A stretch of 64,000 bases of DNA from the NCBI RefSeq assembly GCF_024662215.1, contig NZ_CP096115.1, positions 1,550,001-1,614,000 of the forward strand, read 5' to 3'. Positions 3-60,136 of this stretch are shown one piece after another (positions within the stretch are counted from its first letter, which is position 1; every line of letters starts with the position of its first letter). The position numbers and the translations under genes are program-made. This DNA comes from Methanoplanus endosymbiosus (GTDB lineage Archaea; Halobacteriota; Methanomicrobia; Methanomicrobiales; Methanomicrobiaceae). The notes under the pieces were generated by a model, which made no database searches, had not been told where the DNA came from, and saw nothing but the letters and a program-made list of their open reading frames with translations.

Positions 3-1226
3 CTGATAAATGAAGCCCTTGTCGCTGTTGAAGACAAAAACAGGTCAAAACTGGAGGGCGTATTCCGGAATATAGACTTTAACAGTGAATCCAACCTTGG
101 CAGGACAAAAGAGAGAAACCGCCGGCTGAAGACCCTGCTTGAGGATTTTAATAAACCACAACTGGATATGAGCCCGGGCAATGTCTCAGAAGATGTGATC
201 GGAAATACATACATATATCTGATTGAGAAATTTGCATCCGATGCAGGAAAGAAGGCTGGGGAATTTTACACACCACACGCAGTATCAAAGCTTATTGCTA
301 AACTTGCAAAGCCAAAAGATGGCGACAGGATCTGCGATCCTTCCTGTGGTTCCGGGGGACTGTTGATTGAAGCCGGAAGAGAGGTTGGAAGTGACAATTA
401 TGCTCTCTTTGGTATGGAGGTTAACGGCAGCACCTGGGCACTTGCACGGATGAATATGTTCCTTCATAACGCTGACGGGGCAAGAATTGAATGGTGCAAT
501 ACTCTGACAAACCCCGCCCTGGTCGATGGTGACCGCCTGATGAAGTTTAATGTTGTTGTTGCCAATCCTCCGTTCAGTCTGGATAAATGGGGTGCTGACG
601 TAGCTGAAACTGACATATTCAACCGCTTCTGGCGCGGCATTCCTCCGAAGAGCAAGGGCGACTGGGCGTTTATAAGCCACATGATAGAAGCGGCACTCAA
701 TAAGGAGGGCCGTGTTGCCGTAGTTGTCCCACACGGCGTATTATTCCGTTCAGCAAAGGAAGGAAAAATCCGTCGGAAAATGATCGAGGAGAACCTCCTT
801 GATGCAGTAATTGGCCTGCCTGCAAACCTCTTTCCGACTACCAGCATTCCGGTTGCAATCTTAGTCTTTGACCGCAGCCGTGAAAGAGGCGGAGATAATG
901 AGAACAGACGAGATGTATTATTTATTGACGCAAGTTCTGAGTATATCTCCGGAAAAAACCAGAATTCACTCTCAGATTTACAACTGGACAGGATTGTTAA
1001 GACATACTATGACCGCACAGATGTGGAAAAATACGCTCATGTTGCCAATATGGAAGAGATTGAAGAGAATGACTTCAACCTCAACATTCCCCGCTATGTG
1101 GACACCTTTGAAGAGGAGGAGGAGATTGACATAGATGCAGTTCAGATGGAGATTGATGAACTTGAAAAAGAACTCGGTGAAATCCGTCTGAAGATGGCCC
1201 ATAAACTTGATGAGATCCGGAGATGA
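3..1226 (+). CDS. hsdM: Type I restriction-modification DNA methyltransferase subunit HsdM (5' end outside window)
   Basis: This N6-adenine methyltransferase subunit modifies the target site and forms the M2S core of a type I enzyme. The frame is open from base 3, and the upstream residues fit the HsdM N-terminal helical region, so the first ATG in the window (168) is internal and the gene starts before the window. Visible are FYTP (264-275), the SAM-binding motif DPSCGSGG (from 336) and the catalytic NPPF motif (about 573-584), then a C-terminal acidic coiled stretch. The 3' end lies just ahead of dinD, and the whole locus hsdM-dinD-rhuM-hsdS-TIGR04141-hsdR is tightly packed on one strand. 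About 407 residues are visible, against roughly 500 for the family. The family assignment is secure; the target sequence cannot be read from the gene. Confidence 0.96.
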   Translation: MINEALVAVEDKNRSKLEGVFRNIDFNSESNLGRTKERNRRLKTLLEDFNKPQLDMSPGNVSEDVIGNTYIYLIEKFASDAGKKAGEFYTPHAVSKLIAKLAKPKDGDRICDPSCGSGGLLIEAGREVGSDNYALFGMEVNGSTWALARMNMFLHNADGARIEWCNTLTNPALVDGDRLMKFNVVVANPPFSLDKWGADVAETDIFNRFWRGIPPKSKGDWAFISHMIEAALNKEGRVAVVVPHGVLFRSAKEGKIRRKMIEENLLDAVIGLPANLFPTTSIPVAILVFDRSRERGGDNENRRDVLFIDASSEYISGKNQNSLSDLQLDRIVKTYYDRTDVEKYAHVANMEEIEENDFNLNIPRYVDTFEEEEEIDIDAVQMEIDELEKELGEIRLKMAHKLDEIRR

Positions 1227-1230
1227 TCAG

Positions 1231-2109
1231 ATGAACTCAGAAAACATTGAAAAAAAGCACCATCTGACTTTTGAGGAGATGAAACAGACAGATCCTGATG
1301 GGAGTGAATTCTGGATGGCACGTCGGTTATCCAGAGTTTTAGAATATGCAGAGTTCCGGAATTTTCAGCCGGTGATTGAGAAAGCAAAAAAGGCCTGCGT
1401 AAATAGTGGCCAGAATGTAAAAGACCATTTCGTGGAGATGCACGAGATGGTCAGGATAGGTTCAGGCGCTGAAAGAAAAATGGACTCATACGCTCTCTCA
1501 CGCTATGCCTGCTACCTGATTGTTCAGAACGGAGATCCGTCAAAACCGGTTATTGCCAATGGCCAGACATATTTTGCCATTCAGACACGAAGGCAGGAAC
1601 TGGCTGATGATGAGGCTTTTCAGCGCCTTAAAGAGGAGGAAAAACGGTTGTTTCTTCGTTCCGAGATGCGTGAGCACAACAAACAGCTCATGGAGGCAGC
1701 ACAGCAGGCCGGTGTTGTTTCCGGGATGGACTTTGCTGTTTTTCAGAACCACGGGTACAGGGGACTTTATGGCGGACTGGATGCCAAAGCGATTCATAAG
1801 AGAAAACAACTGAAGAAGAACCAGAAGATCCTTGACAATATGGGCAGCACTGAACTTGCAGCCAATCTCTTCCGTGCAACACAGACCGACGAAAAGATAC
1901 GCAGGGAAGAGATCCGGGGAAAAAATAACGCCAACAGGACACATCTTGAAGTCGGCAGCAAGGTGCGCCAGACAATTGAAGAACTTGGCGGAACTATGCC
2001 TGAAAACCTCCCTACGCCTGATAAAAACCTGAAAAAGCTGGAAAAGAAGGCGAAATCTCCGAATACAAAGATGGTTAATTCCGGACATTCAGCAAAAGAG
2101 GAGAGATAA
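1231..2109 (+). CDS. dinD: DinD-like protein (DNA-damage-inducible protein D family)
   Basis: A 292-residue DinD-family protein. E. coli DinD is an SOS-induced protein that inhibits RecA strand exchange in vitro; archaeal members are often found inside type I restriction loci, and their role there is unknown. The family is recognised from the BRO-N-like N-terminal half (FWMARRLSRVLEYAEFRNF, then YALSRYACYLIVQNGDPSKP) and the conserved central block with YRGLYGG followed by NMGSTELAANLFRATQTD. I chose ATG 1231 because GGAG at 1219-1222 sits 8 nt upstream; a TTG at 1207 and an ATG at 1210 in the same frame would overlap hsdM and lack such a site. The stop overlaps the rhuM start as TAATG. Translational coupling with the neighbouring subunits is likely. 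Confidence 0.9.
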   Translation: MNSENIEKKHHLTFEEMKQTDPDGSEFWMARRLSRVLEYAEFRNFQPVIEKAKKACVNSGQNVKDHFVEMHEMVRIGSGAERKMDSYALSRYACYLIVQNGDPSKPVIANGQTYFAIQTRRQELADDEAFQRLKEEEKRLFLRSEMREHNKQLMEAAQQAGVVSGMDFAVFQNHGYRGLYGGLDAKAIHKRKQLKKNQKILDNMGSTELAANLFRATQTDEKIRREEIRGKNNANRTHLEVGSKVRQTIEELGGTMPENLPTPDKNLKKLEKKAKSPNTKMVNSGHSAKEER

Positions 2110-3161
2110 TGGCTAAAGGGAAGAATGGAATTATTCCTGCAAGCCGCGATAACCCTACTGAGTTTTTGTTATATACATCTCCTGACGGTGAGGTTAAAGT
2201 TGAAGTTTTCCTTCATGACGAAACAATCTGGCTGCCGCAGAAGAAGATTGCTGAGTTATTTGGTGTTGGTGTTCCGGCGATATCAAAACACCTGGATAAT
2301 ATTTATGAAAGCGGTGAGCTTGATAGAAATTCAACTATTTCCATTTTGGAAACAGTTCAAAAAGAGGGTAATCGCAATGTTAAAAGAAAGCTTGAATATT
2401 ACAACCTTGACGCAGTCATATCCGTAGGCTATCGTGTCAATTCATCCAAAGCAACGCAATTTAGGATCTGGGCAACAAAACTGCTCAAAGAGTTTATCAT
2501 CAAAGGCTTTGTGATGGATGATGACCGGCTCAAGAATGGTCATTACTTTGGGAAGGACTATTTCAGGGAACTGCTTGAGCGTGTCCGGTCTATCCGGGCA
2601 AGTGAGCGGAGAATTTATCAGCAGATTACAGACATTTTTGCAGAATGCAGCATTGATTATGAACCAGGATCAGATACGACAAAGCAGTTTTACGCTCATG
2701 TCCAGGATAAATTTCATTTCGCTATCACCGGGCATACTGCCGCTGAGACAGTATATCTCAAAGCAGATGCAGAAAAACCGCTTATGGGACTTAAAACCTA
2801 CAAAAATGCTCCGGATGGCCGGGTGCTTAAGTCCGATATTACGGTGGGCAAAAACTACCTCTCTGAAGAAGAAATAAAACGGCTTGAGAGAACAGTCTCA
2901 GGTTTTTTTGATTATATTGAAAATATCATTGAAAAGCGGACCACAATTACAATGGAGAGTTTTGCAGGAAGCGTTGATAAATTTCTTGACTTCAACGAAT
3001 TCAGAATTCTTGAGGATTATGGTAAGATTTCCAGGAAAAAAGCCGAAGAAAAGGCAACTGAGGAGTATGAAAAGTTCAACAGGAAACAGAATATTGAATC
3101 TGACTTTGACCGGATGATTAAGCATTTGTCAAAGAAACACGGGGAATTAAATGAACAATAG
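2109..3161 (+). CDS. RhuM family protein (virulence RhuM / BRO-N-like)
   Basis: A 350-residue member of the RhuM family (Pfam virulence_RhuM), named after a Salmonella pathogenicity-island protein of unknown biochemistry. The N-terminal half has a winged-helix-like segment (WLPQKKIAELFGVGVPAISKH, about residues 42-62) followed by the family block YNLDAVISVGYRVNSSKATQFRIWAT. The C-terminal half is helical and charged. The gene starts on the ATG overlapping the dinD stop and ends 11 nt inside hsdS, so it is co-translated with the restriction genes. RhuM and DinD genes recur as passengers of type I loci in bacteria and archaea; whether they modulate restriction is inference. Confidence 0.88.
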   Translation: MAKGKNGIIPASRDNPTEFLLYTSPDGEVKVEVFLHDETIWLPQKKIAELFGVGVPAISKHLDNIYESGELDRNSTISILETVQKEGNRNVKRKLEYYNLDAVISVGYRVNSSKATQFRIWATKLLKEFIIKGFVMDDDRLKNGHYFGKDYFRELLERVRSIRASERRIYQQITDIFAECSIDYEPGSDTTKQFYAHVQDKFHFAITGHTAAETVYLKADAEKPLMGLKTYKNAPDGRVLKSDITVGKNYLSEEEIKRLERTVSGFFDYIENIIEKRTTITMESFAGSVDKFLDFNEFRILEDYGKISRKKAEEKATEEYEKFNRKQNIESDFDRMIKHLSKKHGELNEQ

Positions 3162-4404
3162 TCTCCTTAAACAGCCAGACAAAGACATAATGGCAGATTA
3201 TGCGGAGATGTGGGAGATAAAAAAACTCAAAGACTTAACTTCAATTAGAATATCTAACGGTGCATTTAATGATCCTAATAAAACAGGAAATGGTTATAAG
3301 CTGATTAATGTTAAGAACCTGTATAATGAACCTCACATAAATGCATCAGGACTTAGCTTACTAAACATATCTGAAAAAGAATTTGAAAGATACAAGGTAA
3401 AAAAAGGAGATTTATTCTTCACAAGATCTTCACTGAAGGCTGAAGGTATAGCCCATTGCAATATTTTTACCGAAATACCTGATGACATAATTTATGAATG
3501 CCACATTATGAGAATTCGGCCAGATGAAGAAATTATTGATCCATTCTACCTGTTTCATTTTTGCAAATCTTTCCATGCGAGAAAATATTTCATTCGCCAT
3601 TCAAAGGTTGCAACAATGACAACAATTGATCAAAATGATCTGGGAAATTTACCAGTTCTCCTCCCCCCAATCCCCGAACAGAAAGCCATTGCAGATCTCC
3701 TCTCCACCTGGGATGATGCAATAGAAAAGACCGAACGGCTGATTGAAGCGAAAGGAAATGTTTTTAAAAAACTGATAAATGACTTAATTTATATTCCAAC
3801 AGTTAATGGAAAATGGGAAGAATTAAAAATGAAATTTCTCTTCAGTGAACGCAAAGAATCCAAAAGAGATGACCTGCCACTGTTGGCAATTACAGAAAAT
3901 GAGGGCATTATACCTAGAGAAAATACTAACCGTAAAGACACATCCAATAAAGACAAATCCAAGTACCTGAGAATTTGTCCCGGAGACATCGGTTACAATA
4001 CAATGAGGATGTGGCAAGGGGTTTCAGCTCTTTCAATGTTTGAGGGAATTATCAGTCCAGCATACACAGTTTGTATTCCCGGTAAAAAACTTTCACCACA
4101 GTTTATATCTTATTTATTCAAGACACCATTTATGATTCACCGTTTTTACCGGTACTCACAAGGTTTGACATCAGACACATGGAATCTTAAATACTCTAAC
4201 TTCTGTGAAATCAAAATGCCTCTTCCATCATTACCCGAACAGCAGCAGATAGCAGAAACATTGTCAACAGCACAGCAGGAAATTGACCTCCTGAAAAAAC
4301 TGGCAGAGAAGTATAAAGAACAGAAGAGGGGGCTAATGCAGAAACTGCTGACCGGAGAATGGCGGGTGAAAAGTGAAATTTTAAATCAATATAAAGGAGC
4401 GTAA
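3151..4404 (+). CDS. hsdS: Type I restriction-modification specificity subunit HsdS
   Basis: The 417-residue specificity subunit that recognises the bipartite DNA target. Two target-recognition domains are visible, each followed by a conserved helical spacer: LPPIPEQKAIADLLSTWDDA near residue 172, and LPSLPEQQQIAETLSTAQQ near residue 354 with a terminal coiled helix ending LLTGEW. The first target-recognition domain (about 3240-3650) is clearly more AT-rich than the spacers, which is usual for exchangeable recognition domains. The start ATG at 3151 overlaps rhuM; a later ATG at 3190 is possible. Two unlike half-domains imply a bipartite asymmetric site whose sequence cannot be deduced here. 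Confidence 0.95.
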   Translation: MNNSLLKQPDKDIMADYAEMWEIKKLKDLTSIRISNGAFNDPNKTGNGYKLINVKNLYNEPHINASGLSLLNISEKEFERYKVKKGDLFFTRSSLKAEGIAHCNIFTEIPDDIIYECHIMRIRPDEEIIDPFYLFHFCKSFHARKYFIRHSKVATMTTIDQNDLGNLPVLLPPIPEQKAIADLLSTWDDAIEKTERLIEAKGNVFKKLINDLIYIPTVNGKWEELKMKFLFSERKESKRDDLPLLAITENEGIIPRENTNRKDTSNKDKSKYLRICPGDIGYNTMRMWQGVSALSMFEGIISPAYTVCIPGKKLSPQFISYLFKTPFMIHRFYRYSQGLTSDTWNLKYSNFCEIKMPLPSLPEQQQIAETLSTAQQEIDLLKKLAEKYKEQKRGLMQKLLTGEWRVKSEILNQYKGA

Positions 4405-4406
4405 CT

Positions 4407-5975
4407 ATGGTAAAGAGCAGAAGTTTTTCAATATATTTATTAAAAAAGGGATTTTCAGCTGAAAACTCATTAAAAGAACACCATGAGCTCATAGAAAATA
4501 TAACTGCTGATAATCTTCCAGATGGGGCAACGCTCTTTTTACTTGACAAAAATCCATCAAACCCATGGTGGAAAGATTTCTGGAAAATAAAGACAGAACT
4601 AAAGCAGACACTAAAAGGCGCAATTGTTTTTCTTCCTGTTTATGATCGATGCTTTGCCTTTACTTTTGGACATACATACCACAACTTAAAAGAGGAGAGC
4701 TATGAGTATGATTTCGGTTTGAGAAGTACTTTAAACGCAGTAGATCCCGATAAACTTAAAAGTACTGATATATTACAACCAGAAAATGCTAAAAGAGAAA
4801 GTATTCAAAGTTCAAATACTGTTAATTTAACTTTCTTTGATTTTGATAAGGACGAATCAATTGTAAAAAGAATTTCAGGAAAAGTAAAAGAAGAGTATAG
4901 GTATCTCTTTTCAAATGTTACTGGAGCAAATAGCATACGGATTGATTCAAAACTTCAAGCAAGAGAACTACCTGAGTTATGCAGGAATATTTTGGCACTA
5001 TATAACAAAGACGATTTTAAAATACATTTTCCAGACATTCAAAATATCATACCAGTAAAAGATCCAAATATCATATCCAAATTAAATAAACAATTATTAA
5101 AGGTATTTCGTGAGGAATTGACAGATATTGCACTGACTGTTCCTGAAATTATCAATTATCAGGAAAATTTTCAAATAAACTATTCCATAGGGAAGAATAA
5201 TTCAGAAACACATGATGATGCTCATATAAATCATTATATTAAATTTTTTAAAAGTAGAAATATTTCTCCTGACGAAATAGATATTGGCAAACTTAATAAG
5301 CACAATCTGAATATCTGCGATGAAAATAGGCATATAATACAAAGTTTTTCGATATATAAGAGTCTGCTTTTTGACTGTGAATTTGAGAGTAAGCACTACC
5401 ACATATGTGAAGGTAAATGGTATGAGTTAGACAAAGATTATATAGTCAGATTAAAAAAACAATTAGATCCTTACTTCAAAAATAACATTTTACCAAAGTG
5501 CGACTACAAAAGAGAAGATTCTTACAACAAGCATGTAAGTGATACAAATCATAAATTTATTTGTTTAGATAAAAAAAATATTTCACCTAAAGGACAATCC
5601 TCAGTAGAACCATGCGATCTTTATACTTCCACAGATAACAAGGCAACACTGATACATATAAAAATATCAACTCGATCTGCCAATTTAAGTCATCTTTTTA
5701 ATCAAGGCTTAAATTCAGCTGAAATTATACGACTTCACGAAGAATCTAAAGATAAACTAAAAAAACTTATAGGAAATAAAGATACAGAAATTATAGATGG
5801 AGATAAATTTGAAGTAATATATGGGATAATTACTGCTAAAAACCCAGATAAGAAATCCAACAATTTACCTATTTTTTCAAGAATTAGTTTATTGAGATGC
5901 ATTAACTCCTTTAAATTAATGGGTCTGCATGTCTCGATCATGCTTATTGAGGATGAGTATGACAGAAAAAAGTAG
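4407..5975 (+). CDS. TIGR04141/DUF6119-type sporadically distributed protein embedded in the restriction locus
   Basis: A 522-residue protein that I assign to the TIGR04141 (DUF6119) group, proteins of unknown function scattered through prokaryotes. Supporting patches are the N-terminal FSIYLLKKGF with NPWWKDFW (residues about 52-58), the block FGLRSTLNAVDPDKLKSTDI, and a C-terminal region EPCDLYT...LIHIKIS...LSHLFNQGLNSAE. That last region (D, then about a dozen residues, then IHIK) resembles a divergent restriction-endonuclease-like core, but this is only inference. The start has GGAG about 8 nt upstream, 2 nt after the hsdS stop. The gene is markedly AT-rich compared with hsdR and hsdM, which suggests separate acquisition. 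Its position between hsdS and hsdR in one transcription unit points to a function tied to restriction or phage defence. Confidence 0.72.
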   Translation: MVKSRSFSIYLLKKGFSAENSLKEHHELIENITADNLPDGATLFLLDKNPSNPWWKDFWKIKTELKQTLKGAIVFLPVYDRCFAFTFGHTYHNLKEESYEYDFGLRSTLNAVDPDKLKSTDILQPENAKRESIQSSNTVNLTFFDFDKDESIVKRISGKVKEEYRYLFSNVTGANSIRIDSKLQARELPELCRNILALYNKDDFKIHFPDIQNIIPVKDPNIISKLNKQLLKVFREELTDIALTVPEIINYQENFQINYSIGKNNSETHDDAHINHYIKFFKSRNISPDEIDIGKLNKHNLNICDENRHIIQSFSIYKSLLFDCEFESKHYHICEGKWYELDKDYIVRLKKQLDPYFKNNILPKCDYKREDSYNKHVSDTNHKFICLDKKNISPKGQSSVEPCDLYTSTDNKATLIHIKISTRSANLSHLFNQGLNSAEIIRLHEESKDKLKKLIGNKDTEIIDGDKFEVIYGIITAKNPDKKSNNLPIFSRISLLRCINSFKLMGLHVSIMLIEDEYDRKK

Positions 5976-5999
5976 TTTTGATTTTAACGGAGAATAAAT

Positions 6000-8900
6000 A
6001 TGACTCCACCACCAATAACAGAAAAACTTCAGTCACAGATACCGGCATTACAACTGCTGATAAATCTTGGATATACTTACCTGACACCTGAAGAGGCCCT
6101 GAAACTGAGATATAACCGGACTTCTGAGGTAGTGCTCGAAGAAATCCTGAGCCGGAAACTTAAAGAGATAAACAGAATCAGATACAAAGGAATGGAATAC
6201 CTCTTCAGCGAAGAGAACATCCAGTCTGCTGTTCAGAGGCTGAAAAACATACGCTACGACGGACTACAGACAACAAACCAGGAAGTATATGACATACTCA
6301 CACTTGGCGAATCATTTGAGCAGACCATAAACGGGGATAAAAAGAGCTTTCATTTAAACTACATAGACTGGAAAAACCCTGACAATAACTCATACCACGT
6401 AACAGCAGAATTTCCGGTTGAGAGAACAAAAAGCGAGAGAACAGCACGGCCCGACATTGTTCTTTTCGTAAACGGAATTCCACTCGTGGTTATAGAATGC
6501 AAATCTCCAAAGAATGATGTAGAAGAGGCAGTATCACAGTCACTCAGAAATCAGGGAAAAGACTACATTCCAAAACTCTTCATGTACGCACAGATTGTCC
6601 TTGGAATAAACAAAAACCGGGCAATGTACGCAACCGCAGGCACTACCAAAAAATTCTGGAGCATATGGAAAGAAGAACCACCCTCAGATGAGATAATAAA
6701 CAGAAGTCTGCCTGACGATATAAAAGATAAACTTTACTCCGGAGACTTTGAGACCGCAGGATGGCATTTTAAAAGATTACAGGAAAGTGGCGGCAGAATT
6801 GCAACAGAGCAGGATACGGCCCTGTATTCTCTTTGCAGACCGGAAAGACTCATTGAACTGACACACAGGTTCATCATCTTCGATGCAGGAATAAAAAAGA
6901 TTGCACGTTACCAGCAGTACTTTGTAATTAAATCAACATTAGAGCGTATCAGAACAACCAACGAAGACAACCGGAGAAGAGGGGGAATTATCTGGCATAC
7001 ACAGGGGTCAGGAAAATCCCTTACAATGGTAATGCTTGCCAGAAATATTGCACTTGATAAAGAGCTGAATAACCCACGGATAGTCATTGTAACAGACAGA
7101 ACAGACCTTGACACACAGCTCAAAAATACATTTACAGAATGCGGGCTTGAACCCAAGAAGGCGACATCCGGGAGAAACCTCCTTGAACTCGTATCTGAGG
7201 AAAAAACAGGCATCATAACAACCCTTGTCCACAAGTTTGACAAAGCACTGAACATAAAAAAATACAGAAATGAATCATCTGAAATAATCATTCTCGTTGA
7301 TGAAGGGCACAGGACACAGTCTGGATCACTATCCGGACGAATGAGACAGATGTTTCCAAACGCCTGCTATATCGGGTTCACCGGGACACCCCTGCTAAAG
7401 AAAGAGAAGAACAGCTTTGAAAGATTTGGAGGACTTATCTCGCCGCATTATTCCATCAGCCAGGCAGTAGAGGACAAAGCAGTAGTCCCGCTTCTTTACG
7501 AAGGCCGGCTTGTTGACATAGAACAGGACAAAAAAGCAATTGATACCTGGTTTGAAAGATACACAAAGGACCTGACCAGAGAGCAGATGGCAGATCTAAA
7601 ACGGAAATATGCAAGAGCAGAAGAGCTGAACAAAGCAGACAGAGTCATATATATGAGGGCTTATGACATCAGTGATCACTTCTGCAAAAACTGGAAAGGG
7701 ACAGGGTTTAAGGGTCAGCTTATAGCTCCGAATAAAGCATCCGCAGTAACATACCTGAAATATCTAAGAGAAATAGGGGAAGTCTCAGCCGAAGTTATCA
7801 TATCCCCACCGGACATGAGGGAAGGATACGATGAAGCTGAAGATGAATCAAAAGACCAGGTTGTGGCATTCTGGAAAAAGATGATGGAGAGGTACAGAAA
7901 TGCGGATGAATACACAACCCAGATAATTAACCAGTTCAAACACGGAGAAGAGCCTGAGATAATAATCGTAGTTGACAAACTTATCACCGGATTTGACGCT
8001 CCGGTGAACACCGTCATGTATCTCTGCCGCAACCTGCGTGAACACACCCTGCTTCAGGCTATCGCCAGAGTAAACAGGGTACATGAAGGCAAAGATTTTG
8101 GTTACATCATCGACTACGCCGGCATTTTAGGAAAACTTGATGAAGCACTGACTATGTACAGTGCATTTGAAGGATTTGATCCCGAAGATGTAGAGGGCAC
8201 TGTTATATCTGTTAAATCAGAGATAGAAAAACTTCCCCAGTATCACTCAGATCTTTTAGACATATTTAAGGATGTACCCAATGTCTATGACGAAGAAGCC
8301 TATGAGGTCCATTTAAGTGATAAGGAAAGGAGAGACAGATTTTATGGACGGCTGTTTAACTTCAGTAAATGCTTATCTGTCGCACTATCATCAGAACATT
8401 TCATGCTAAACACCAGCGATTCACTGATAAAGAGATATAAAAACGATCTGAAGAGATTTACAAACCTGAAAGCATCTGTTAAGCTGAGATATGCAGATTC
8501 CATTGATTACCGGGATTATGAGCCAAAGATCAAAAAACTGATCGATACAAACATCAAAGCGGATGAGGTTATCCAGCTCAATGAACCGGTGAACATATTT
8601 GACAGGGAGAAGTTTTCAGCCGTAAAAGAGGAACTTGGGATATACAACGGAAAAAGTACAGTTTCCCGTGCAGATATTATTGCCCATGCAACAAAGAGAA
8701 AGATAACTGAGAAGATGGATGAGGACCCGGCTTTTTACAAAAAGTTCTCTGACCTGATCCAGGAGGCTATAGATGACTTCAGGGCAAGAAGAATTTCAGA
8801 GATTGATTATTATAACAGAGTCGTGGACCTAAAGGAGAAGGTTACAAAGAAAGAACACGAAAATGTACCGGATGACATTCAGGAGAATTACAGTGCAATG

Positions 8901-9185
8901 GCATACTATGGCGCAATAGACGAAATTCTCAGAGTTAATAACCCTGATGAAGAAAAAAGAAACCAGATTTCAGCAGAGATAGCATTGAAAGTCTGTAAGA
9001 GTCTGAAGGCACACAATAAAGTCCAGTTCTGGGAAGATGAGGATGCAAAGAACTGTGTACGAAATGATATAGATGATTATCTTTATGATGTGGTAAAAGA
9101 CGAGATAGATTTAAGCACCGGACAAATGACTGAGATCATTGATAAAACCCTTCACATTGCAAAAAAACGGGAATGTTATGAATAA
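6000..9185 (+). CDS. hsdR: Type I restriction endonuclease subunit HsdR
   Basis: The 1061-residue motor and nuclease subunit that translocates DNA and cuts unmodified molecules. The N-terminal endonuclease has D152, E166 and K168 (RPDIVLFVNGIPLVVIECK). The SF2 helicase core follows with Walker A TQGSGKS (334-340), a DEGH box (434-437), the FTGTP motif, and a C-terminal RecA lobe with LITGFDAPVNTV and QAIARVNR. The C-terminal third is the helical HsdM/HsdS-docking region. The start ATG has GGAG about 10 nt upstream. All catalytic motifs are intact, so the type I enzyme is probably functional. It overlaps the metalloprotease gene by 8 nt. Confidence 0.97.
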   Translation: MTPPPITEKLQSQIPALQLLINLGYTYLTPEEALKLRYNRTSEVVLEEILSRKLKEINRIRYKGMEYLFSEENIQSAVQRLKNIRYDGLQTTNQEVYDILTLGESFEQTINGDKKSFHLNYIDWKNPDNNSYHVTAEFPVERTKSERTARPDIVLFVNGIPLVVIECKSPKNDVEEAVSQSLRNQGKDYIPKLFMYAQIVLGINKNRAMYATAGTTKKFWSIWKEEPPSDEIINRSLPDDIKDKLYSGDFETAGWHFKRLQESGGRIATEQDTALYSLCRPERLIELTHRFIIFDAGIKKIARYQQYFVIKSTLERIRTTNEDNRRRGGIIWHTQGSGKSLTMVMLARNIALDKELNNPRIVIVTDRTDLDTQLKNTFTECGLEPKKATSGRNLLELVSEEKTGIITTLVHKFDKALNIKKYRNESSEIIILVDEGHRTQSGSLSGRMRQMFPNACYIGFTGTPLLKKEKNSFERFGGLISPHYSISQAVEDKAVVPLLYEGRLVDIEQDKKAIDTWFERYTKDLTREQMADLKRKYARAEELNKADRVIYMRAYDISDHFCKNWKGTGFKGQLIAPNKASAVTYLKYLREIGEVSAEVIISPPDMREGYDEAEDESKDQVVAFWKKMMERYRNADEYTTQIINQFKHGEEPEIIIVVDKLITGFDAPVNTVMYLCRNLREHTLLQAIARVNRVHEGKDFGYIIDYAGILGKLDEALTMYSAFEGFDPEDVEGTVISVKSEIEKLPQYHSDLLDIFKDVPNVYDEEAYEVHLSDKERRDRFYGRLFNFSKCLSVALSSEHFMLNTSDSLIKRYKNDLKRFTNLKASVKLRYADSIDYRDYEPKIKKLIDTNIKADEVIQLNEPVNIFDREKFSAVKEELGIYNGKSTVSRADIIAHATKRKITEKMDEDPAFYKKFSDLIQEAIDDFRARRISEIDYYNRVVDLKEKVTKKEHENVPDDIQENYSAMAYYGAIDEILRVNNPDEEKRNQISAEIALKVCKSLKAHNKVQFWEDEDAKNCVRNDIDDYLYDVVKDEIDLSTGQMTEIIDKTLHIAKKRECYE

Positions 9186-41938: not shown

Positions 41939-42455
41939 ATATCCCTTCAGATCACTGCTGAAAAAAATACAGGATCTTCTTTTGGGTATTGAACAGGAAA
42001 CTGCTCCGGCAGCACTGCCTAAAATAATCCCCGTCCTGATTGTGCTTGTCGCAGTTGTCATAATTCCGGGCTGCACTGAATTATCTGACAGTTCAGTTGT
42101 TTTTCCGGGCGGGACTCAGATCTGTATTGACAACGAAACCCACCTGAAATGGATGGAGGAATTCAGAGAGAACCCGGAGAAGTATCTCACCAATCCGGAA
42201 AATCCGTTTGAGTGGACAATTAAGGGCATGCACAGTACTGCAACACCATTTGGAGACGAACAGGCAATTGAATATTACAATAAAGCAATAGAGATCGATT
42301 CTGAATTCCCTATGGCATACTGTGGAAAAGCTGAGGCTCTCGGCAATCTTAAGAGATTTAACGAAAGTGTTGAGTGCCTGAGAAAAGCTGTTGAGCTTGA
42401 CAGCAGGTATGAACCATGGGCCGATAAGCTCAGACAGAGATATAGCCTTGATTAG
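41931..42455 (+). CDS. Membrane-anchored TPR lipoprotein-like protein
   Basis: A 174-residue protein. ATG 41931 overlaps the msrA stop, giving a start consistent with coupling. A hydrophobic segment KIIPVLIVLVAVVIIPGC ends in a possible lipobox cysteine, and the C-terminal half has tetratricopeptide repeats (AIEYYNKAIEIDSEFPMAY, then ESVECLRKAVELDSRY). TPR proteins mediate protein contacts; no partner is evident apart from MsrA upstream. Confidence 0.75.
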   Translation: MIKYPFRSLLKKIQDLLLGIEQETAPAALPKIIPVLIVLVAVVIIPGCTELSDSSVVFPGGTQICIDNETHLKWMEEFRENPEKYLTNPENPFEWTIKGMHSTATPFGDEQAIEYYNKAIEIDSEFPMAYCGKAEALGNLKRFNESVECLRKAVELDSRYEPWADKLRQRYSLD

Positions 42456-42780
42456 GTTCGGCTCCGATTCCGGTCTTACCTAACCTCCATAAGTGAATGA
42501 TCTGAAAGGATGGAGTTTTAAAGAATAAACTACAGATTATTCATTTAACGGACTGCACTTCCGGGCAGCAAATTATCTCAGCACTGATGAGACAATTGTG
42601 CCGGAAGCACTTAAATTAGAATATTCTTATCCTGAAATAATATGGATTTTTAAAAACAGGAGCATTTTAACTGAATATGCTTTCAATTCCTCCGGTGAGA
42701 ACGTTGAAACTGTAAGAAAGATTTGAACCGTCAGTCTTCAGATATTTACCTATTGCTCTTGAACCACTGATCTTCTGATA
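42456..42780. other. Intergenic stretch with a startless 65-codon frame
   Basis: The stretch contains an open plus-strand frame from 42529 to the TGA at 42724-42726 that encodes protein-like sequence (KLEYSYPEIIWIFKNRS) but has no start codon and no recognised family. It may be the 3' remnant of a decayed gene. No RNA gene or repeat was seen. Confidence 0.3.
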
Positions 42781-43227
42781 TTATCCATTCGTAATATTTC
42801 TGAGTTCTTCTGAGGGTTTTTTTATGCTGTCCGGACTCTGAAATTTTTTTAAGCTCTGCTTTTCAGCGATACCGGGAATGTCAAATCCATCTTCGACCGC
42901 TCTTAAATCACCAAGATAAAATGATTCAAGTTCGGTGCACGCAATCCGCACCATTGTATTATCCCTGTGTGCTTCCCTGCATTTGTTCATGAGATTTTCC
43001 CTGATCTCTATACAGTTACCATTGTCCTGGTCCCTTAGAATTACAAAAAAAGTATCGGGAGTTCTCCAGCCTCTGAGTTTTTTTACAATCTGTTTCTCTA
43101 AATCCTGTTTCCCCTGAAATATCACATAGCGTACCTGAATATATTCCGGAATCATTGAAGGAAGAAGCCCCTTAAGCATCTCTTTTGCTGATGGCTATTC
43201 GAGAAAGAAGACAAGAGTTGTGATCAT
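42781..43227 (-). pseudogene. DUF4276 protein interrupted by an in-frame amber codon
   Basis: Reading from ATG 43227, which lies 2 nt after the ATPase stop, the frame encodes MITTLVFFLE, then TAG at 43195-43197, then PSAKEMLKGLLP and a complete DUF4276 body through IACTELESFYLGDLRAVE to the stop at 42781. The family N-terminus normally reads through this point (an acidic residue followed by PSAKEML), so a single base change has created a nonsense codon at position 11. Conserved acidic residues (the LE before the stop and LRDQD) recall a Toprim-like nuclease, which is inference. Translation could restart at ATG 43179, losing the first strand and its conserved Glu. Pyrrolysine read-through is unlikely in this lineage. 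Confidence 0.75.
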
Positions 43228-43229
43228 AT

Positions 43230-44432
43230 TCAGATCTCACCAAAAAAGCCCTCTCTCCAGAGAGACCCCATCTGATCGCCTTCTTCCATGTAGGCAGCTA
43301 TCTGTTCATCATCTTTTGCCCGTTTTATTTTCGTATAGCCATCTGATTTTTCAAGCCAGTACACTTCATCAGGGAGGGCGGCATTGAGGAAGTCGGGGGA
43401 GTGGGTAGATACAAACACCTGCCCGCCGCGATTTGCATAGTCCCTGAATTCTTCGGCAAGTTCCCACAGGAGTTTAGGGTAGAGCTGGTTTTCTGGTTCT
43501 TCAACACATAAGAGGGGGTGTGGATTTGGATCATAAAGGAGAACGAGATATGCCAGCATCTTTATTGTTCCGTCAGAGACATAACGGGCAAGGAATGGAT
43601 CTTCAAAAGATCCGTCCTGAAACTTCAGAAGGACACGCCCCTCTTCCGTTGTCTTTGATTCTACATCTGTTATGCCGGGGACCCGGTCCTTTAGCAGTTC
43701 AATAATTATCCCAAATGTCTCAGGATATTCCCTGTGCAGATACTGTATTACAATCGAGAGATTTTCACCTTCAGTTAAGAGATGTTCCGCATATCCGGCT
43801 TCCTGTTCTGGGCGTGCCCTGTTTATATGAAAATCGGATGTATGCCAGTTTTCAATAAAATTGCCAAGTGAGACCACTGCCGGGAATTTTTCAAACTGTG
43901 TGAGGCCCTTTATCGCCAGAATATCATTGGATTTTAAGTTCTGTTCTTCTCTCTGGAGTTTACTTATGTCTGATGTCTCACTCAGTACTTTATCCTGTGC
44001 ATCATCAGAAATTTCTGTTACTGCGTACCCCTTACCATCTGCAAATTCAAGAATGCTCAGGGGTTTTCCTCTGCTGCCACGGTGGTATTTTAATATCTTA
44101 TTTTCAACATATGCCCGACCTTTTCGCTCATTTATCCGGAGAAAATATGTTATCAGTGGTTTTTCAGAAGATTCCCTGAATTTTATTTCGATCTCTATCG
44201 GGCCTTTGGAATTTCTGCTGCGGACTTCTTCAAATCCTCTGCTGCCTCCAAGTTTTACAAGTGCTGAGTTTACATTGCCTGAGAGTGCATCTTTTAAAAA
44301 TTTAAATACGCTGAATATTGTGCTTTTGCCGCTTCCGTTAGCTCCGACTATTATACAGAAATCCGGAATATCAGTCATCTCAGCATCCTGAAATGCCTTG
44401 AAGTTCTTCAGCCTTATTGATTCAATTTTCAT
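43230..44432 (-). CDS. AAA_21 / COG4637-type ATPase paired with DUF4276
   Basis: A 400-residue SMC/ABC-like ATPase. Walker A is GANGSGKS (residues 30-37), the Walker B region is LLCVEEPENQLYP, and the H-loop region is VSTHSPDFLN. It belongs to the predicted ATPases commonly followed by a DUF4276 gene, an arrangement found in defence neighbourhoods and analogous to the OLD and PARIS ATPase plus Toprim pairs. Here the ATPase is intact and its partner is broken by an amber codon. The 2-nt spacing indicates one operon. Confidence 0.88.
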   Translation of the reverse strand: MKIESIRLKNFKAFQDAEMTDIPDFCIIVGANGSGKSTIFSVFKFLKDALSGNVNSALVKLGGSRGFEEVRSRNSKGPIEIEIKFRESSEKPLITYFLRINERKGRAYVENKILKYHRGSRGKPLSILEFADGKGYAVTEISDDAQDKVLSETSDISKLQREEQNLKSNDILAIKGLTQFEKFPAVVSLGNFIENWHTSDFHINRARPEQEAGYAEHLLTEGENLSIVIQYLHREYPETFGIIIELLKDRVPGITDVESKTTEEGRVLLKFQDGSFEDPFLARYVSDGTIKMLAYLVLLYDPNPHPLLCVEEPENQLYPKLLWELAEEFRDYANRGGQVFVSTHSPDFLNAALPDEVYWLEKSDGYTKIKRAKDDEQIAAYMEEGDQMGSLWREGFFGEI

Positions 44433-44904
44433 ATTTCCACAGCCTTTTAGATACCAGAATTGTCAGAGTTGCCGGAGTTAACAGGGCCCCCAAAGCAGTT
44501 AGAGTAGCTAAATTAATATCTGTTTTATTTTCCTTAAATGATGTGCCACGAAATTCAGAGTAACTTTAAACACATCCCAAGAAGGCGCCGGATGCATCAG
44601 ACAGTATTAACAGATTCTAACGATATTTTGGAGGATAAAATTACTGACATTTGGCTTATCCTCCATTGAAAGTCACACAGGCTGACATTCATACAGCAGT
44701 TTTCTGGAATAATGTCCGGAGAATACTCTGACCTGACAGGAGTAGTTTTTGTACATACTGCCTTGTTTTTACAGATTAAAAGTTTTAAATCCGGATTGCA
44801 TAATCTTATTAAACTATACATTTTGTTAGTATATGTTAAAAATGTCAGTATGAACTATTTATGCACTAACCGACATATGCTAATATACACTAAGGTGAGT
44901 AAGC
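44433..44904. other. Intergenic region upstream of DUF169 with inverted repeats
   Basis: This 472-nt stretch separates divergent genes. No convincing gene was seen; a 74-codon minus frame at 44597-44821 lacks coding character. It holds a perfect 10-bp inverted repeat TGGAGGATAA / TTATCCTCCA (44629-44638 and 44656-44665) with a 17-nt loop, and a near-perfect 11-bp repeat TTAGTATATGT / ACATATGCTAA (44826-44836 and 44873-44883, one mismatch) just upstream of the DUF169 start. Confidence 0.5.
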
Positions 44905-56595: not shown

Positions 56596-56777
56596 CACTT
56601 ATGGCTCCTCGCTAAATCCTGTGGGTAGTTATCAAAGGTTTCCAACAAATGACTTGTTTTTTTGCAGGATTATAATAGATCATTTTAGCTAAATGCTGGA
56701 TTCATGGTGTTTGTGGCTGAATTGGTGATTATAGCGATCAAATTTTACCCACACCAAACAGCGAGGAGCCACACTTA
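56596..56777. repeat. CACTTA target-site duplication flanking the MITE
   Basis: Exact 6-bp copies (56596-56601, 56772-56777) abut the element. Excising the element with one copy restores the reading frame of the host gene, confirming insertion into a once-intact gene. Confidence 0.88.
56602..56771. mobile_element. 170-bp MITE-like element with 6-bp target duplication
   Basis: The element starts TGGCTCCTCGCT and ends AGCGAGGAGCCA (12-bp perfect terminal inverted repeats); a further 8-bp block TGTGGGTA / TACCCACA continues the repeat after a mismatched spacer. CACTTA occurs on both sides (56596-56601 and 56772-56777). It has no coding capacity and needs a transposase in trans; none with these ends is in the window. 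Confidence 0.88.
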
Positions 56778-57050
56778 TTCACAGGAACCTTCCGCCATCT
56801 GCCCGGAAGACCGTCTTTTGGAAGCTGCAGCCTTAAGTCCTTCATAATTTTTGGAATTAGAGGGTTTTCCAGTTCAAGGAGGCAGATGTATATTATTGGT
56901 TTATCGAGTCTGTCCTCAGCCCATCTGTACAGAAATGTATCCCTGAATTTCAGTGTCAGTGATTTTATCAGGGGATTATAACAGTTCTTATCAGGATAAC
57001 CGTCTGAAGCATCGGTGTAGTCTTTAACCTCAACAAAATAATATTTATTC

Positions 57051-58951
57051 GTATCATATCCAAAATCGGAGAAATAGGTTAAAAATGAATTTTTATAAGT
57101 TGGATGAAATGTATCTGTGTTGACCTACCGGTACATTTGAAAGGTCCTCTTTTGCAGCAACTGAATTTTTACCCTCTATTTTAAGATCATCCAAGGTTGC
57201 TTTCTGGTTTTTGCATGCTATTATCTCAGCAAGTGATTTTTGTCTATGACCATTTATGATCAAACCGGCTATATGATCAAAGGGATTTATGTCCAACTTC
57301 TTAGCAGTTTTAACAATTGTTAAATTTCTGTCTACAACATTTGTTCCTTTCTCATTTCTTGTAAATAAGCTTATATCACGATGTCTGACCTGTGCTCGTG
57401 CTCCGAGCTCAGCATCATTATTATGAAGAGGGACGTGAGGGTGATCTAAGAATGTGAGTAAGAAGTCTTTATTCCGGTGTGTCTTCTCAATTCTTAGGTT
57501 CAACTCTTTATATTCAGTCTCGCTGTTAAATAACTCATCAAAGTCCTTTCTAATTTTTAATGCCCACTCTGGAGATGGATTGTCTTTATATGCTCTCATC
57601 TCTCTGTAAAATGCCCAAAACCGATCCATGAAATCTTCATGGACTTTTCTCATTACAGCAGTTTTAGGTTTTAATTTTTTATAGTGTCTGGCTTCATGAA
57701 CCCAACATAACTGGTGTTCTTCAGTGATATTGTCGTATTGGGGTGCATCATCTGTAAGAAGAATTTTTGGAACTGGGTAATCTTTCTGTGATCTGTAATA
57801 AGCAATCAATCCAGCCTCAGTAACTCGCTTTTTAAGCGTTTTAAATCCTTCTTGACCAAATAACTCAACCAAACTATTTTCTAATTCAAATTCACTAAAG
57901 CAAGAGTTGTAAATATTTTCTCTAAGTTTTTTGATCCATTTTTTTGCGGTTCTAAGATTGGATAAATGTTCAAAGGCAAACTCATTGAATAGGTACTTGG
58001 GTTCTAAAACTTCCATAATGTGCTTAACTATGCTAATTCTATCCTTTTTTGGAGAAGTTCTAAATGCTGTGAAATTATGATTTGAAAAGATATGTGTATT
58101 ATATTGAGTGCCATTTACATTAGCTCCAGTTGTATCTGTCTGGAGGTAATCGGAGGACTTTATTCCTTCTTTTAGTATATCTTCCGATTCTTTATCTAAA
58201 ACCTCATTCTTTTCAGTTAATTTCCTTGAGATTGTAGATTGGGCTATAAAGATACCATGGTTATTTAAAAAGGCTCTAATTGCATTTTCACTCATTCCAC
58301 AAATTGCTTTGCATTCAATAATAAGTGCCTTTATTCCAGGACCAAATTCTCCACCATATCCTTGAGGTCGATCAGTTAAGAGATATCTTCCTTCTGAAGG
58401 GGAATAATATTTTTCAAGTAAAAACTTTGTATTTCTCGGACGAATTTCAATGTCCTGTATGATTAATTCAGAAAAGCCTTTAAAAACTGCATCTTTCGGA
58501 AGTTTATTTTTGTCAGAGTACCAGATCTTTTCTTCATGGATTTCGATTTTATGATTACGTTTTCCTCTGCCTTTATTTGGATTATTTTGATCTGATTTCT
58601 CTTTTTTTGAGCGTTCCTCCTCAGTAGAATGATTTTTATTGCCAGAACCCCCTTTTCTTTTTCCTTTTTTTGCGGCTTCCGGCCTACCCTGTTCACCAAT
58701 TAGATGATTGTAATCATCTCTGAGTTGAAGATGCTCTTCATATAATTTATCGTATTTTGCAGATAGTTCCTCAAAGGCTGAGATGAGCAAATATATTATG
58801 TCTTTATCCGGAGAATTATCTATCCGATCAGGAGTTATTACGGATTCTAATTCTTTGAAGATACCATTTGACATAATGTATTCTATATTTTGAATTTATA
58901 AGTACAAATTATTATCCATTATCACATTACCTCACATTATGGATATGATAC
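57051..58951 (-). mobile_element. IS66-like insertion sequence, 1901 bp, with 8-bp target duplication
   Basis: The ends GTATCATATCC (57051-57061) and GGATATGATAC (58941-58951) are perfect inverted repeats that continue imperfectly to about 25 bp. The 8-bp direct repeat ATTTATTC abuts both ends (57043-57050, 58952-58959), the duplication length of the IS66 family. A single transposase gene fills the element. It appears complete and possibly still mobile. Confidence 0.9.
57093..58874 (-). CDS. IS66-like transposase
   Basis: A 593-residue DDE transposase. An N-terminal coiled region (EELSAKYDKLYEEHLQLRDD) and a basic low-complexity stretch precede the catalytic core: TDTTGANVNG (first D), ILLTDDAPQYD (second D), LCWVHEARH, and HNNDAELGARAQVRHRDISL holding the final Glu. 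These match IS66 (whose standard ending is PLDNNxAER) in order and spacing. The IS66 accessory genes tnpA and tnpB are absent, as in archaeal and short variants. Confidence 0.88.
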   Translation of the reverse strand: MSNGIFKELESVITPDRIDNSPDKDIIYLLISAFEELSAKYDKLYEEHLQLRDDYNHLIGEQGRPEAAKKGKRKGGSGNKNHSTEEERSKKEKSDQNNPNKGRGKRNHKIEIHEEKIWYSDKNKLPKDAVFKGFSELIIQDIEIRPRNTKFLLEKYYSPSEGRYLLTDRPQGYGGEFGPGIKALIIECKAICGMSENAIRAFLNNHGIFIAQSTISRKLTEKNEVLDKESEDILKEGIKSSDYLQTDTTGANVNGTQYNTHIFSNHNFTAFRTSPKKDRISIVKHIMEVLEPKYLFNEFAFEHLSNLRTAKKWIKKLRENIYNSCFSEFELENSLVELFGQEGFKTLKKRVTEAGLIAYYRSQKDYPVPKILLTDDAPQYDNITEEHQLCWVHEARHYKKLKPKTAVMRKVHEDFMDRFWAFYREMRAYKDNPSPEWALKIRKDFDELFNSETEYKELNLRIEKTHRNKDFLLTFLDHPHVPLHNNDAELGARAQVRHRDISLFTRNEKGTNVVDRNLTIVKTAKKLDINPFDHIAGLIINGHRQKSLAEIIACKNQKATLDDLKIEGKNSVAAKEDLSNVPVGQHRYISSNL

Positions 58952-59098
58952 ATTTATTCTCTGTTTCAACGATGAAATCAACTGCTTTCATGCAGTGAGA
59001 TAATCCATGAAAAGTTCCTTTTGACCTGTCTTTTTCATCAAACTTAAATGCATCAATCACTCCATTAAAATCAAATTGCAGATTTCCCTCCTGCAATA

Positions 59099-60136
59099 TC
59101 ATTTAAGACTGCCCCGCATCTCTCTTGCAATATCCCTGTCAATAATATCTGCAAACGTATCATCAATTGCATTGGGAGAGATCTTTTCATATTCCAGAGT
59201 TGATGAGATGGAGATTTCATTCGTCTCTTTGTCCCTGAACAGGCTATGATAGATTATCTTATCGTTTTCAATTCTCTGAAGATCAAATTCTTTCAGAATG
59301 ATATAATCATGGGTTGAAATTAGTATCTGAACTCCCATTCTCTGAAGTTCAACAAGAATCTCAACAACTGTCCTCATAAGCCTTGGATTTAAATTTGCCT
59401 CCGGTTCATCCCAGCAGAGCACAGAACCACTGGTAAGTGTCCCGTTCTGTATCAGAAGCCATAGAAGTACCAGTTTTCTGAGGCCCTCTGCAACCAGTGT
59501 AAATTCAAGCTCGCCATGCTTATTTTTCAGGAAAAACTCTTCATTTTTGATTACCACCCGGCCATCAATCGCCTTTTGAAGGATATTCATGAGCTTCTTC
59601 CTTCCGGCATCCATAGGGCCTTTAAGTGAACCAAGAAAGGCCCTGTCAATGATATCTGCATAGACTTCTTCAAAGTGAATATCCCTCAGGCTGTACAATG
59701 ACCGGAATCCCGGAGCATTGGCCATCATATCTTTAACAGGAATATATACTGACTCTATCGGTTCCTCAGACCATGTCTTATACGCACCGGAAATTTTTGC
59801 ACCCTCAGGGCTTTTTGTATGATTGGAGATACTCAGGCGTATTACAGCATTTTTATTCTGATTCAGTACCCTTTGAATTTCTACAAAACCATTTGAACTT
59901 CCAGGTGATCTTTTCACAAGGCGTCCGGTATGCTCACCTGAGGGAAGGAAGACTTTAGTCAGTTTTTCTGCAAAACCCTTCCTGCTCTTGGAGATCTCAC
60001 AACCAGCATATACAGTTTTTAGTATGTGGGTTTTTCCTGTGCTATTTTCGCCGGTAAATACATTAATCCCGGGTGAAAGACCAATCTCCAGCTCCTGAAA
60101 AGCGGTGAAGTTTTCAAATTTTACACATTTTATCAT
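59099..60136 (-). CDS. AAA_15/AAA_21-type ATPase upstream of the disrupted nuclease-like gene
   Basis: A 345-residue ABC/SMC-like ATPase. Walker A is GENSTGKT (residues 29-36), Walker B is VLCWDEPEANLNP, and the H-loop is ISTHDYIIL. There is no Toprim domain on this polypeptide. AGGAAG just upstream supports ATG 60136. Its stop overlaps the start of the disrupted 161-codon gene (ATGA), so it is probably the sensor/motor partner of that gene in a two-component defence-like module. With the effector lost it may be neutral now. Confidence 0.88.
   Translation of the reverse strand: MIKCVKFENFTAFQELEIGLSPGINVFTGENSTGKTHILKTVYAGCEISKSRKGFAEKLTKVFLPSGEHTGRLVKRSPGSSNGFVEIQRVLNQNKNAVIRLSISNHTKSPEGAKISGAYKTWSEEPIESVYIPVKDMMANAPGFRSLYSLRDIHFEEVYADIIDRAFLGSLKGPMDAGRKKLMNILQKAIDGRVVIKNEEFFLKNKHGELEFTLVAEGLRKLVLLWLLIQNGTLTSGSVLCWDEPEANLNPRLMRTVVEILVELQRMGVQILISTHDYIILKEFDLQRIENDKIIYHSLFRDKETNEISISSTLEYEKISPNAIDDTFADIIDRDIAREMRGSLK

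What the first reader, a model, noticed from the sequence alone, without database searches (positions are those of the whole stretch)
42781..44432. ATPase/DUF4276 pair with an amber codon at position 11 of the effector-like gene
Seen: starting 2 nt after the ATPase stop, the DUF4276 frame reads MITTLVFFLE-TAG-PSAKEML and then stays open to its normal end. The stop sits beside the N-terminal conserved acidic residue. Known: DUF4276 genes commonly follow such ATPases. Inference: a recent point mutation inactivated the second gene, or the gene restarts at 43179 as a truncated form.
Basis: partly seen in the sequence, partly recalled or inferred. Interest (0 to 1): 0.7.

Follow-up and report, generated by a model that had tools for sequence, protein, structure and literature searches.

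The report
Broken partner gene of archaeal defence pair
In a methanogenic archaeon, the second gene of a two-gene candidate anti-virus system has been knocked out by two separate stop mutations while its ATPase partner stays intact; this is ordinary gene decay, though the same one-sided decay recurs in relatives.

Summary
The ATPase (43230-44432, minus) is followed 2 nt later by a DUF4276 frame with TAG at codon 11 (43195-43197). One detail is wrong: the frame does not run to its normal end. The sister genome, a 96%-identical pair at the same place, has glutamate at codon 11 and lysine at codon 149, where the window has a second stop (TAA, 42781-42783). The full gene is 186 aa and ends at 42667. 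Both stops arose on the window's lineage; E11 is invariant in 18 homologues. No recoding was found: no PylS, no CUA tRNA among 57 tRNA hits, and no amber recoding would cure the TAA.

The pair matches PADLOC candidate defence system HEC-01. Low pN/pS dates the loss as recent. The ATPase is open and constrained (pN/pS 0.10).

Partner loss beside an open ATPase recurs: 3 of 20 pairs in the archaeal sample plus one loss with a truncated ATPase, and 6 of 78 database loci (biased to intact ATPases). A second ATPase/nuclease pair in the window (HEC-02) has its partner cut by an IS66-like element while the ATPase is intact.

Verdict: a recently inactivated effector pseudogene in a known candidate system. 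Effector-first decay is suggestive, not proven.

The parts
43230..44432 (-). AAA_21/AAA_15 ABC-type ATPase of the pair, 400 aa, open; Walker A GANGSGKS, Walker B LLCVEEPEN and H-motif STHSPD present
   Evidence: Pfam PF13304 E 1.2e-30; PADLOC PDLC04144 HEC-01B E 2.7e-188; alignment; pN/pS 0.10 against the sister genome
42667..43227 (-). DUF4276 partner pseudogene, full ancestral extent of 186 codons plus stop, carrying two internal nonsense codons
   Evidence: sister gene 186 aa at the same place; PF14103 match over the whole frame with 1 TAG and 1 TAA; PADLOC PDLC04143 HEC-01A E 7.8e-63
43195..43197 (-). TAG at codon 11; invariant glutamate in 18 aligned homologues, directly after E10
42781..42783 (-). 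second premature stop, TAA at codon 149 (lysine in the sister and in Methanogenium)
42667..42669 (-). ancestral stop codon of the DUF4276 gene
   Evidence: alignment with the sister and Methanogenium genes
   Evidence: ORF listed; sequence
42021..44561 (.). tract that is 91% identical to the sister genome; the ATPase has pS 0.17 against 0.41-0.46 in neighbouring genes, which suggests exchange after the species split

Best explanation
This is a two-gene candidate antiviral module of the HEC-01 type: an ABC-type ATPase (likely sensor/regulator) plus a small DUF4276 protein (likely metal-dependent, TOPRIM-like nuclease effector). In this genome the effector gene has recently become a pseudogene through two nonsense changes (codons 11 and 149), while the ATPase gene stays intact and constrained. 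Shown: the pair, both stops, their derived state, intact copies elsewhere, no recoding machinery found. Inferred: antiviral function, effector chemistry, and that loss was tolerated or favoured because an effector without a threat is a cost or a self-toxicity risk.
For: Sister genome has sense codons at both places in the same location. Outgroups place both nonsense changes on the window lineage; ATPase changes there are 6 non-synonymous to 11 synonymous, against 7 to 19 on the sister lineage. Effector pN/pS is 0.22 even with the nonsense changes counted, so the gene was constrained for most of its history. E10, E11, D66 and D68 are invariant in 18 homologues. HEC-01 models match both proteins. 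PylS best match 27.8 bits against a 178.15 cut-off; no CUA anticodon among 57 tRNA hits. Partner loss beside an open ATPase also in Methanogenium CSMAG_280, the sister's second copy and L104, L105, L109, L125, L158.
Against: The reading frame outside the two stops is well preserved, which also fits a very recent change, a sequencing error at codon 11, or a rarely translated product. No reads or second strain were available. Four of six window-lineage ATPase changes hit positions invariant in the outgroups (E112K, R117H, S219L, Y390S), so the ATPase may be starting to decay as well. The antiviral role and nuclease chemistry of HEC-01 were not tested here.
Confidence: 0.9

Rival explanations
1. 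Amber recoding: the TAG is read as pyrrolysine or by a suppressor tRNA, so the protein is made in full.
For: Methanogens include pyrrolysine users; the frame after the TAG stays open for 137 codons.
Against: No PylS over the cut-off while one control genome (of 14, a set that includes Methanosarcina acetivorans) passes it; no CUA anticodon among 57 tRNA hits; the second stop is TAA; the position is glutamate in all homologues; TAG ends 4 of 34 genes checked in the window.
Confidence: 0.02
2. Truncated but useful protein: translation restarts at 43179 after the TAG and codons 17-148 make a shortened partner, for example an inactive regulator that still binds the ATPase.
For: An ATG lies 15 nt after the TAG and the region between the stops is open. 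Stop-and-restart over a short distance can occur (general knowledge).
Against: It lacks the first strand and E10/E11, and conserved S156, I159, S171, S173, F174 at the C-terminus. K76, invariant in 18 homologues, is changed to R on this lineage. No clear ribosome-binding site before 43179.
Confidence: 0.06
3. Sequencing or assembly error at the codon 11 site.
For: One substitution; no reads were available.
Against: Single-contig genome of 3.16 Mb, 99.1% complete; the gene carries a second, independent nonsense change and further lineage-specific replacements.
Confidence: 0.04

Closest known systems
HEC-01 (Hma-embedded candidate 1, PADLOC-DB 2.0; Payne et al. preprint cited in PMC12988326)
   Same: Same two genes; both proteins match HEC-01 models with very low E-values.
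   Different: Here the DUF4276 gene is broken. The antiviral activity of HEC-01 itself was not checked in any paper I could read.
PARIS (AriA/AriB), 'class 4 OLD'
   Same: An ABC ATPase and a small nuclease encoded as separate adjacent genes; the ATPase matches AriA models at E 4.4e-30. In PARIS AriA is the sensor and AriB the tRNA-cutting effector (PMC12409363).
   Different: The ATPase scores far higher to HEC-01 (2.7e-188), and the partner is DUF4276, with no AriB match.
Intact HEC-01 pairs in bacteria and archaea (e.g. Methanogenium MK-MG, Chlorobiaceae, Synechocystis pSYSM, Meiothermus plasmid)
   Same: ATPase followed directly by a 183-207 aa DUF4276 protein, usually with overlapping start and stop; some sit beside other defence genes.
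   Different: Their effector frame is complete.

Membership tests
HEC-01 (PADLOC) | ATPase matching the HEC-01 ATPase model | tested here: met
   PDLC04144 E 2.7e-188, residues 1-398 of 400
HEC-01 (PADLOC) | adjacent DUF4276 partner matching the HEC-01 partner model | tested here: met
   PDLC04143 E 7.8e-63 for the read-through; 2 nt from the ATPase stop
HEC-01 (PADLOC) | both genes intact | tested here: not met
   TAG at codon 11 and TAA at codon 149 of 186; so this is a decayed HEC-01 locus, not a working one
HEC-01 (PADLOC) | antiviral activity | not testable with these tools
   needs an experiment
DUF4276 (PF14103) | profile match over the curated cut-off | tested here: met
   35.9 bits vs 30.2; 18 of 18 homologues match
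TOPRIM nuclease fold | strand-Glu-helix-strand-helix-strand-DxD order | tested here: inconclusive
   AlphaFold2 model of the intact Methanogenium protein, pLDDT 94: strand 4-9 then E10, strand 59-65 then D66/D68, in TOPRIM order; but no significant Foldseek match in the PDB (best E 0.041), no PDB sequence match and no Pfam Toprim match
PARIS | AriB-type effector | tested here: not met
   partner matches only DUF4276/HEC-01 models
Pyrrolysine-decoding organism | PylS and a CUA tRNA | tested here: not met
   PylS below cut-off; no CUA tRNA found among 57 hits, though tRNA-Trp and tRNA-Tyr were also not seen, so the tRNA list is not complete

The most novel reading that the evidence does not exclude
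ATPase/nuclease defence pairs lose their effector first and systematically, and the orphan ATPase is kept by selection for a function of its own (for example decoying a viral trigger, or serving another pair's effector such as the intact DUF4276 pair at 142.9-144.6 kb of this genome).
Probability: 0.1. Interest if true: 0.5.

Novelty: new member of a known kind. Interest (0 to 1): 0.27.

Why it matters
It is a clean, recent example of how a candidate archaeal defence system is switched off: the presumed effector is lost and the ATPase remains. If effector-first loss holds in a larger, unbiased sample, it would be evidence that DUF4276 is the harmful part of the pair, and annotation pipelines that score systems by presence of the ATPase would overcount working systems. 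The case also warns against reading an amber codon in a methanogen as pyrrolysine without checking for PylS, tRNA and further stops.

Tried and rejected
Pyrrolysine or suppressor reading: rejected (and the second stop is TAA). TOPRIM confirmation by structure: AlphaFold2 model good, but Foldseek against the PDB gave nothing significant and sequence searches gave nothing, so TOPRIM remains an inference from motif order. Literature: no paper with DUF4276 in the library; 'HEC-01' hits were unrelated, apart from one phage paper not followed up.

Full report
WHAT IS THERE. On the minus strand an ABC-type ATPase (43230-44432, 400 aa, AAA_21/AAA_15) is followed 2 nt after its stop by an ATG that opens a DUF4276 frame. 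Codon 11 is TAG (43195-43197). The DUF4276 profile is recognised with the stop read through and also from the part after the stop.

CORRECTION. It does not. The nearest genome (G001, same genus, 3.2 Mb, one contig) has the pair with a 96%-identical ATPase and a 95%-identical partner. It has glutamate at codon 11 and lysine at codon 149, and its protein is 186 aa long. In the window codon 149 is TAA (42781-42783), and the ancestral stop is at 42667-42669. A profile search of the genome independently reports one TAG and one TAA in a 189-codon frame. The gene therefore has two nonsense lesions.

DIRECTION AND AGE. With Methanogenium and bacterial outgroups, both nonsense changes fall on the window's lineage. 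In the partner gene the window lineage also has 5 replacements and 10 silent changes; over the whole comparison pN/pS is 0.22 including the nonsense changes. Neutral decay for the whole branch would give a ratio near 1, so inactivation is recent relative to the divergence of the two copies. The tract 42021-44561 is closer to the sister (91% DNA identity; ATPase pS 0.17) than neighbouring genes (pS 0.41-0.46), which suggests that the cassette was exchanged after the species split; the loss is then more recent still. This dating is rough, with few changes.

THE ATPASE. It has no stop, keeps its motifs and has pN/pS 0.10. Window-lineage changes are 6 replacements to 11 silent, sister 7 to 19: no clear difference. 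Four of the window-lineage replacements hit positions invariant in the outgroups, so early relaxation cannot be excluded.

RECODING. The PylS profile gives only weak matches (27.8 bits against a cut-off of 178.15), of the kind also seen in 12 of 14 control genomes; one control genome passes the cut-off. Of 57 tRNA matches none has a CUA anticodon; tRNA-Trp and tRNA-Tyr were not seen either, so the list is not complete. TAG serves as an ordinary stop in 4 of 34 window genes. The second stop is TAA. Recoding is not a viable explanation.

WHAT THE PAIR IS. PADLOC assigns both proteins to HEC-01 with E-values of 2.7e-188 and 7.8e-63 (the A/B labels of the models are not consistent for this family). 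HEC stands for Hma-embedded candidate, a candidate class of which several members have shown antiviral activity (PMC12988326). Intact pairs occur across bacteria and archaea, some beside a type I restriction system with a DUF4433/macro-domain pair or a phosphorothioation gene. In 18 partner proteins E10, E11, D66, D68, E99 and E101 are among the invariant residues. The AlphaFold2 model of the intact Methanogenium protein (pLDDT 94) puts E10 after the first strand and D66/D68 after the third, the order expected of a TOPRIM nuclease (general knowledge), but no PDB structure matched significantly. A nuclease effector is thus an inference. The working model, by analogy with PARIS where the ATPase AriA senses the phage and holds the nuclease AriB (PMC12409363), is ATPase as sensor and DUF4276 as effector.

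IS THE LOSS UNUSUAL? In 393 genomes of the phylum, 19 ATPases of this group (E about 1e-90 or better) were found and 18 partners. Two partners have internal stops (the window's, and the second copy in G001 with TAA; the TGA counted in G011 is its normal end). In G168 the partner was not found and the ATPase C-terminus is truncated. Adding G021 (Methanogenium CSMAG_280; partner cut after about 20 codons, ATPase open) gives 4 of 20 with the partner lost, 3 of them with a complete ATPase, and no case of an intact partner with a broken ATPase. In G023 only partner fragments remain and the ATPase is gone. If lesions fell in proportion to length (400 against 186 codons), three of three in the partner has a probability of about 0.03. 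This is suggestive only: the numbers are small and the comparison was made after seeing the data. Among 78 database loci with enough downstream sequence, 6 have a broken or missing partner beside an open ATPase (L095, which is the same locus as G021, L104, L105, L109, L125, L158), but that set was selected for good ATPase matches, and draft assemblies may hold errors (the L125 frameshift lies in a run of A).

A SECOND CASE IN THE WINDOW. The ATPase at 59102-60136 matches HEC-02 (2.7e-125). Its partner starts at 59102, matches HEC-02B (3.1e-20) and is interrupted by an IS66-like element (57051-58951, inverted ends GTATCATATCC, 8-bp duplication ATTTATTC), whose transposase has nine equal-scoring copies in the genome. 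The downstream part of the partner carries a further palindromic insertion at about 56602-56771. The sister has this partner uninterrupted; the HEC-02 ATPase has pN/pS 0.13. Both ATPase/partner pairs found in the window thus have an open ATPase and a broken partner, by different mechanisms. The genome does keep another DUF4276 gene, intact, beside a distant ATPase at 142.9-144.6 kb.

ORGANISM. Relatives G011 and G021 coincide with Methanogenium records, which puts the window in Methanomicrobiaceae.

VERDICT. A recent, doubly hit effector pseudogene in a known candidate defence pair. The single case is ordinary; the recurring one-sided decay is the part worth following.

Noticed in passing
window 56602-60136: Second ATPase/nuclease candidate pair (HEC-02): ATPase intact, partner gene interrupted by an IS66-like element at 57051-58951 (8-bp target duplication) and by a palindromic MITE-like insertion at about 56602-56771; the sister genome has the partner uninterrupted.
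   Followed up: yes
G000 C1, nine places including window 57093-58874: Nine equal-scoring copies of an IS66-like transposase with a 600-codon frame, suggesting recent activity.
   Followed up: partly
L011 / L058 (G001 C1:1246946-1247524): The sister genome's own second HEC-01-like pair also has a premature TAA in its DUF4276 gene with the ATPase open.
   Followed up: partly
window 168-9185: Type I restriction locus with a RhuM-family gene (2109-3161) and a DUF6119 gene (4407-5975) between its subunits.
   Followed up: no
window 42021-44561: The cassette is markedly less diverged from the sister genome than its neighbours (pS 0.17 against 0.41-0.46), suggesting exchange at this locus after the species split.
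   Followed up: partly
L158, after the ATPase: The partner remnant is followed by two copies of a repeat (TTATGTGCAATCCTTGTAGTTGTG-like) of unknown kind.
   Followed up: no
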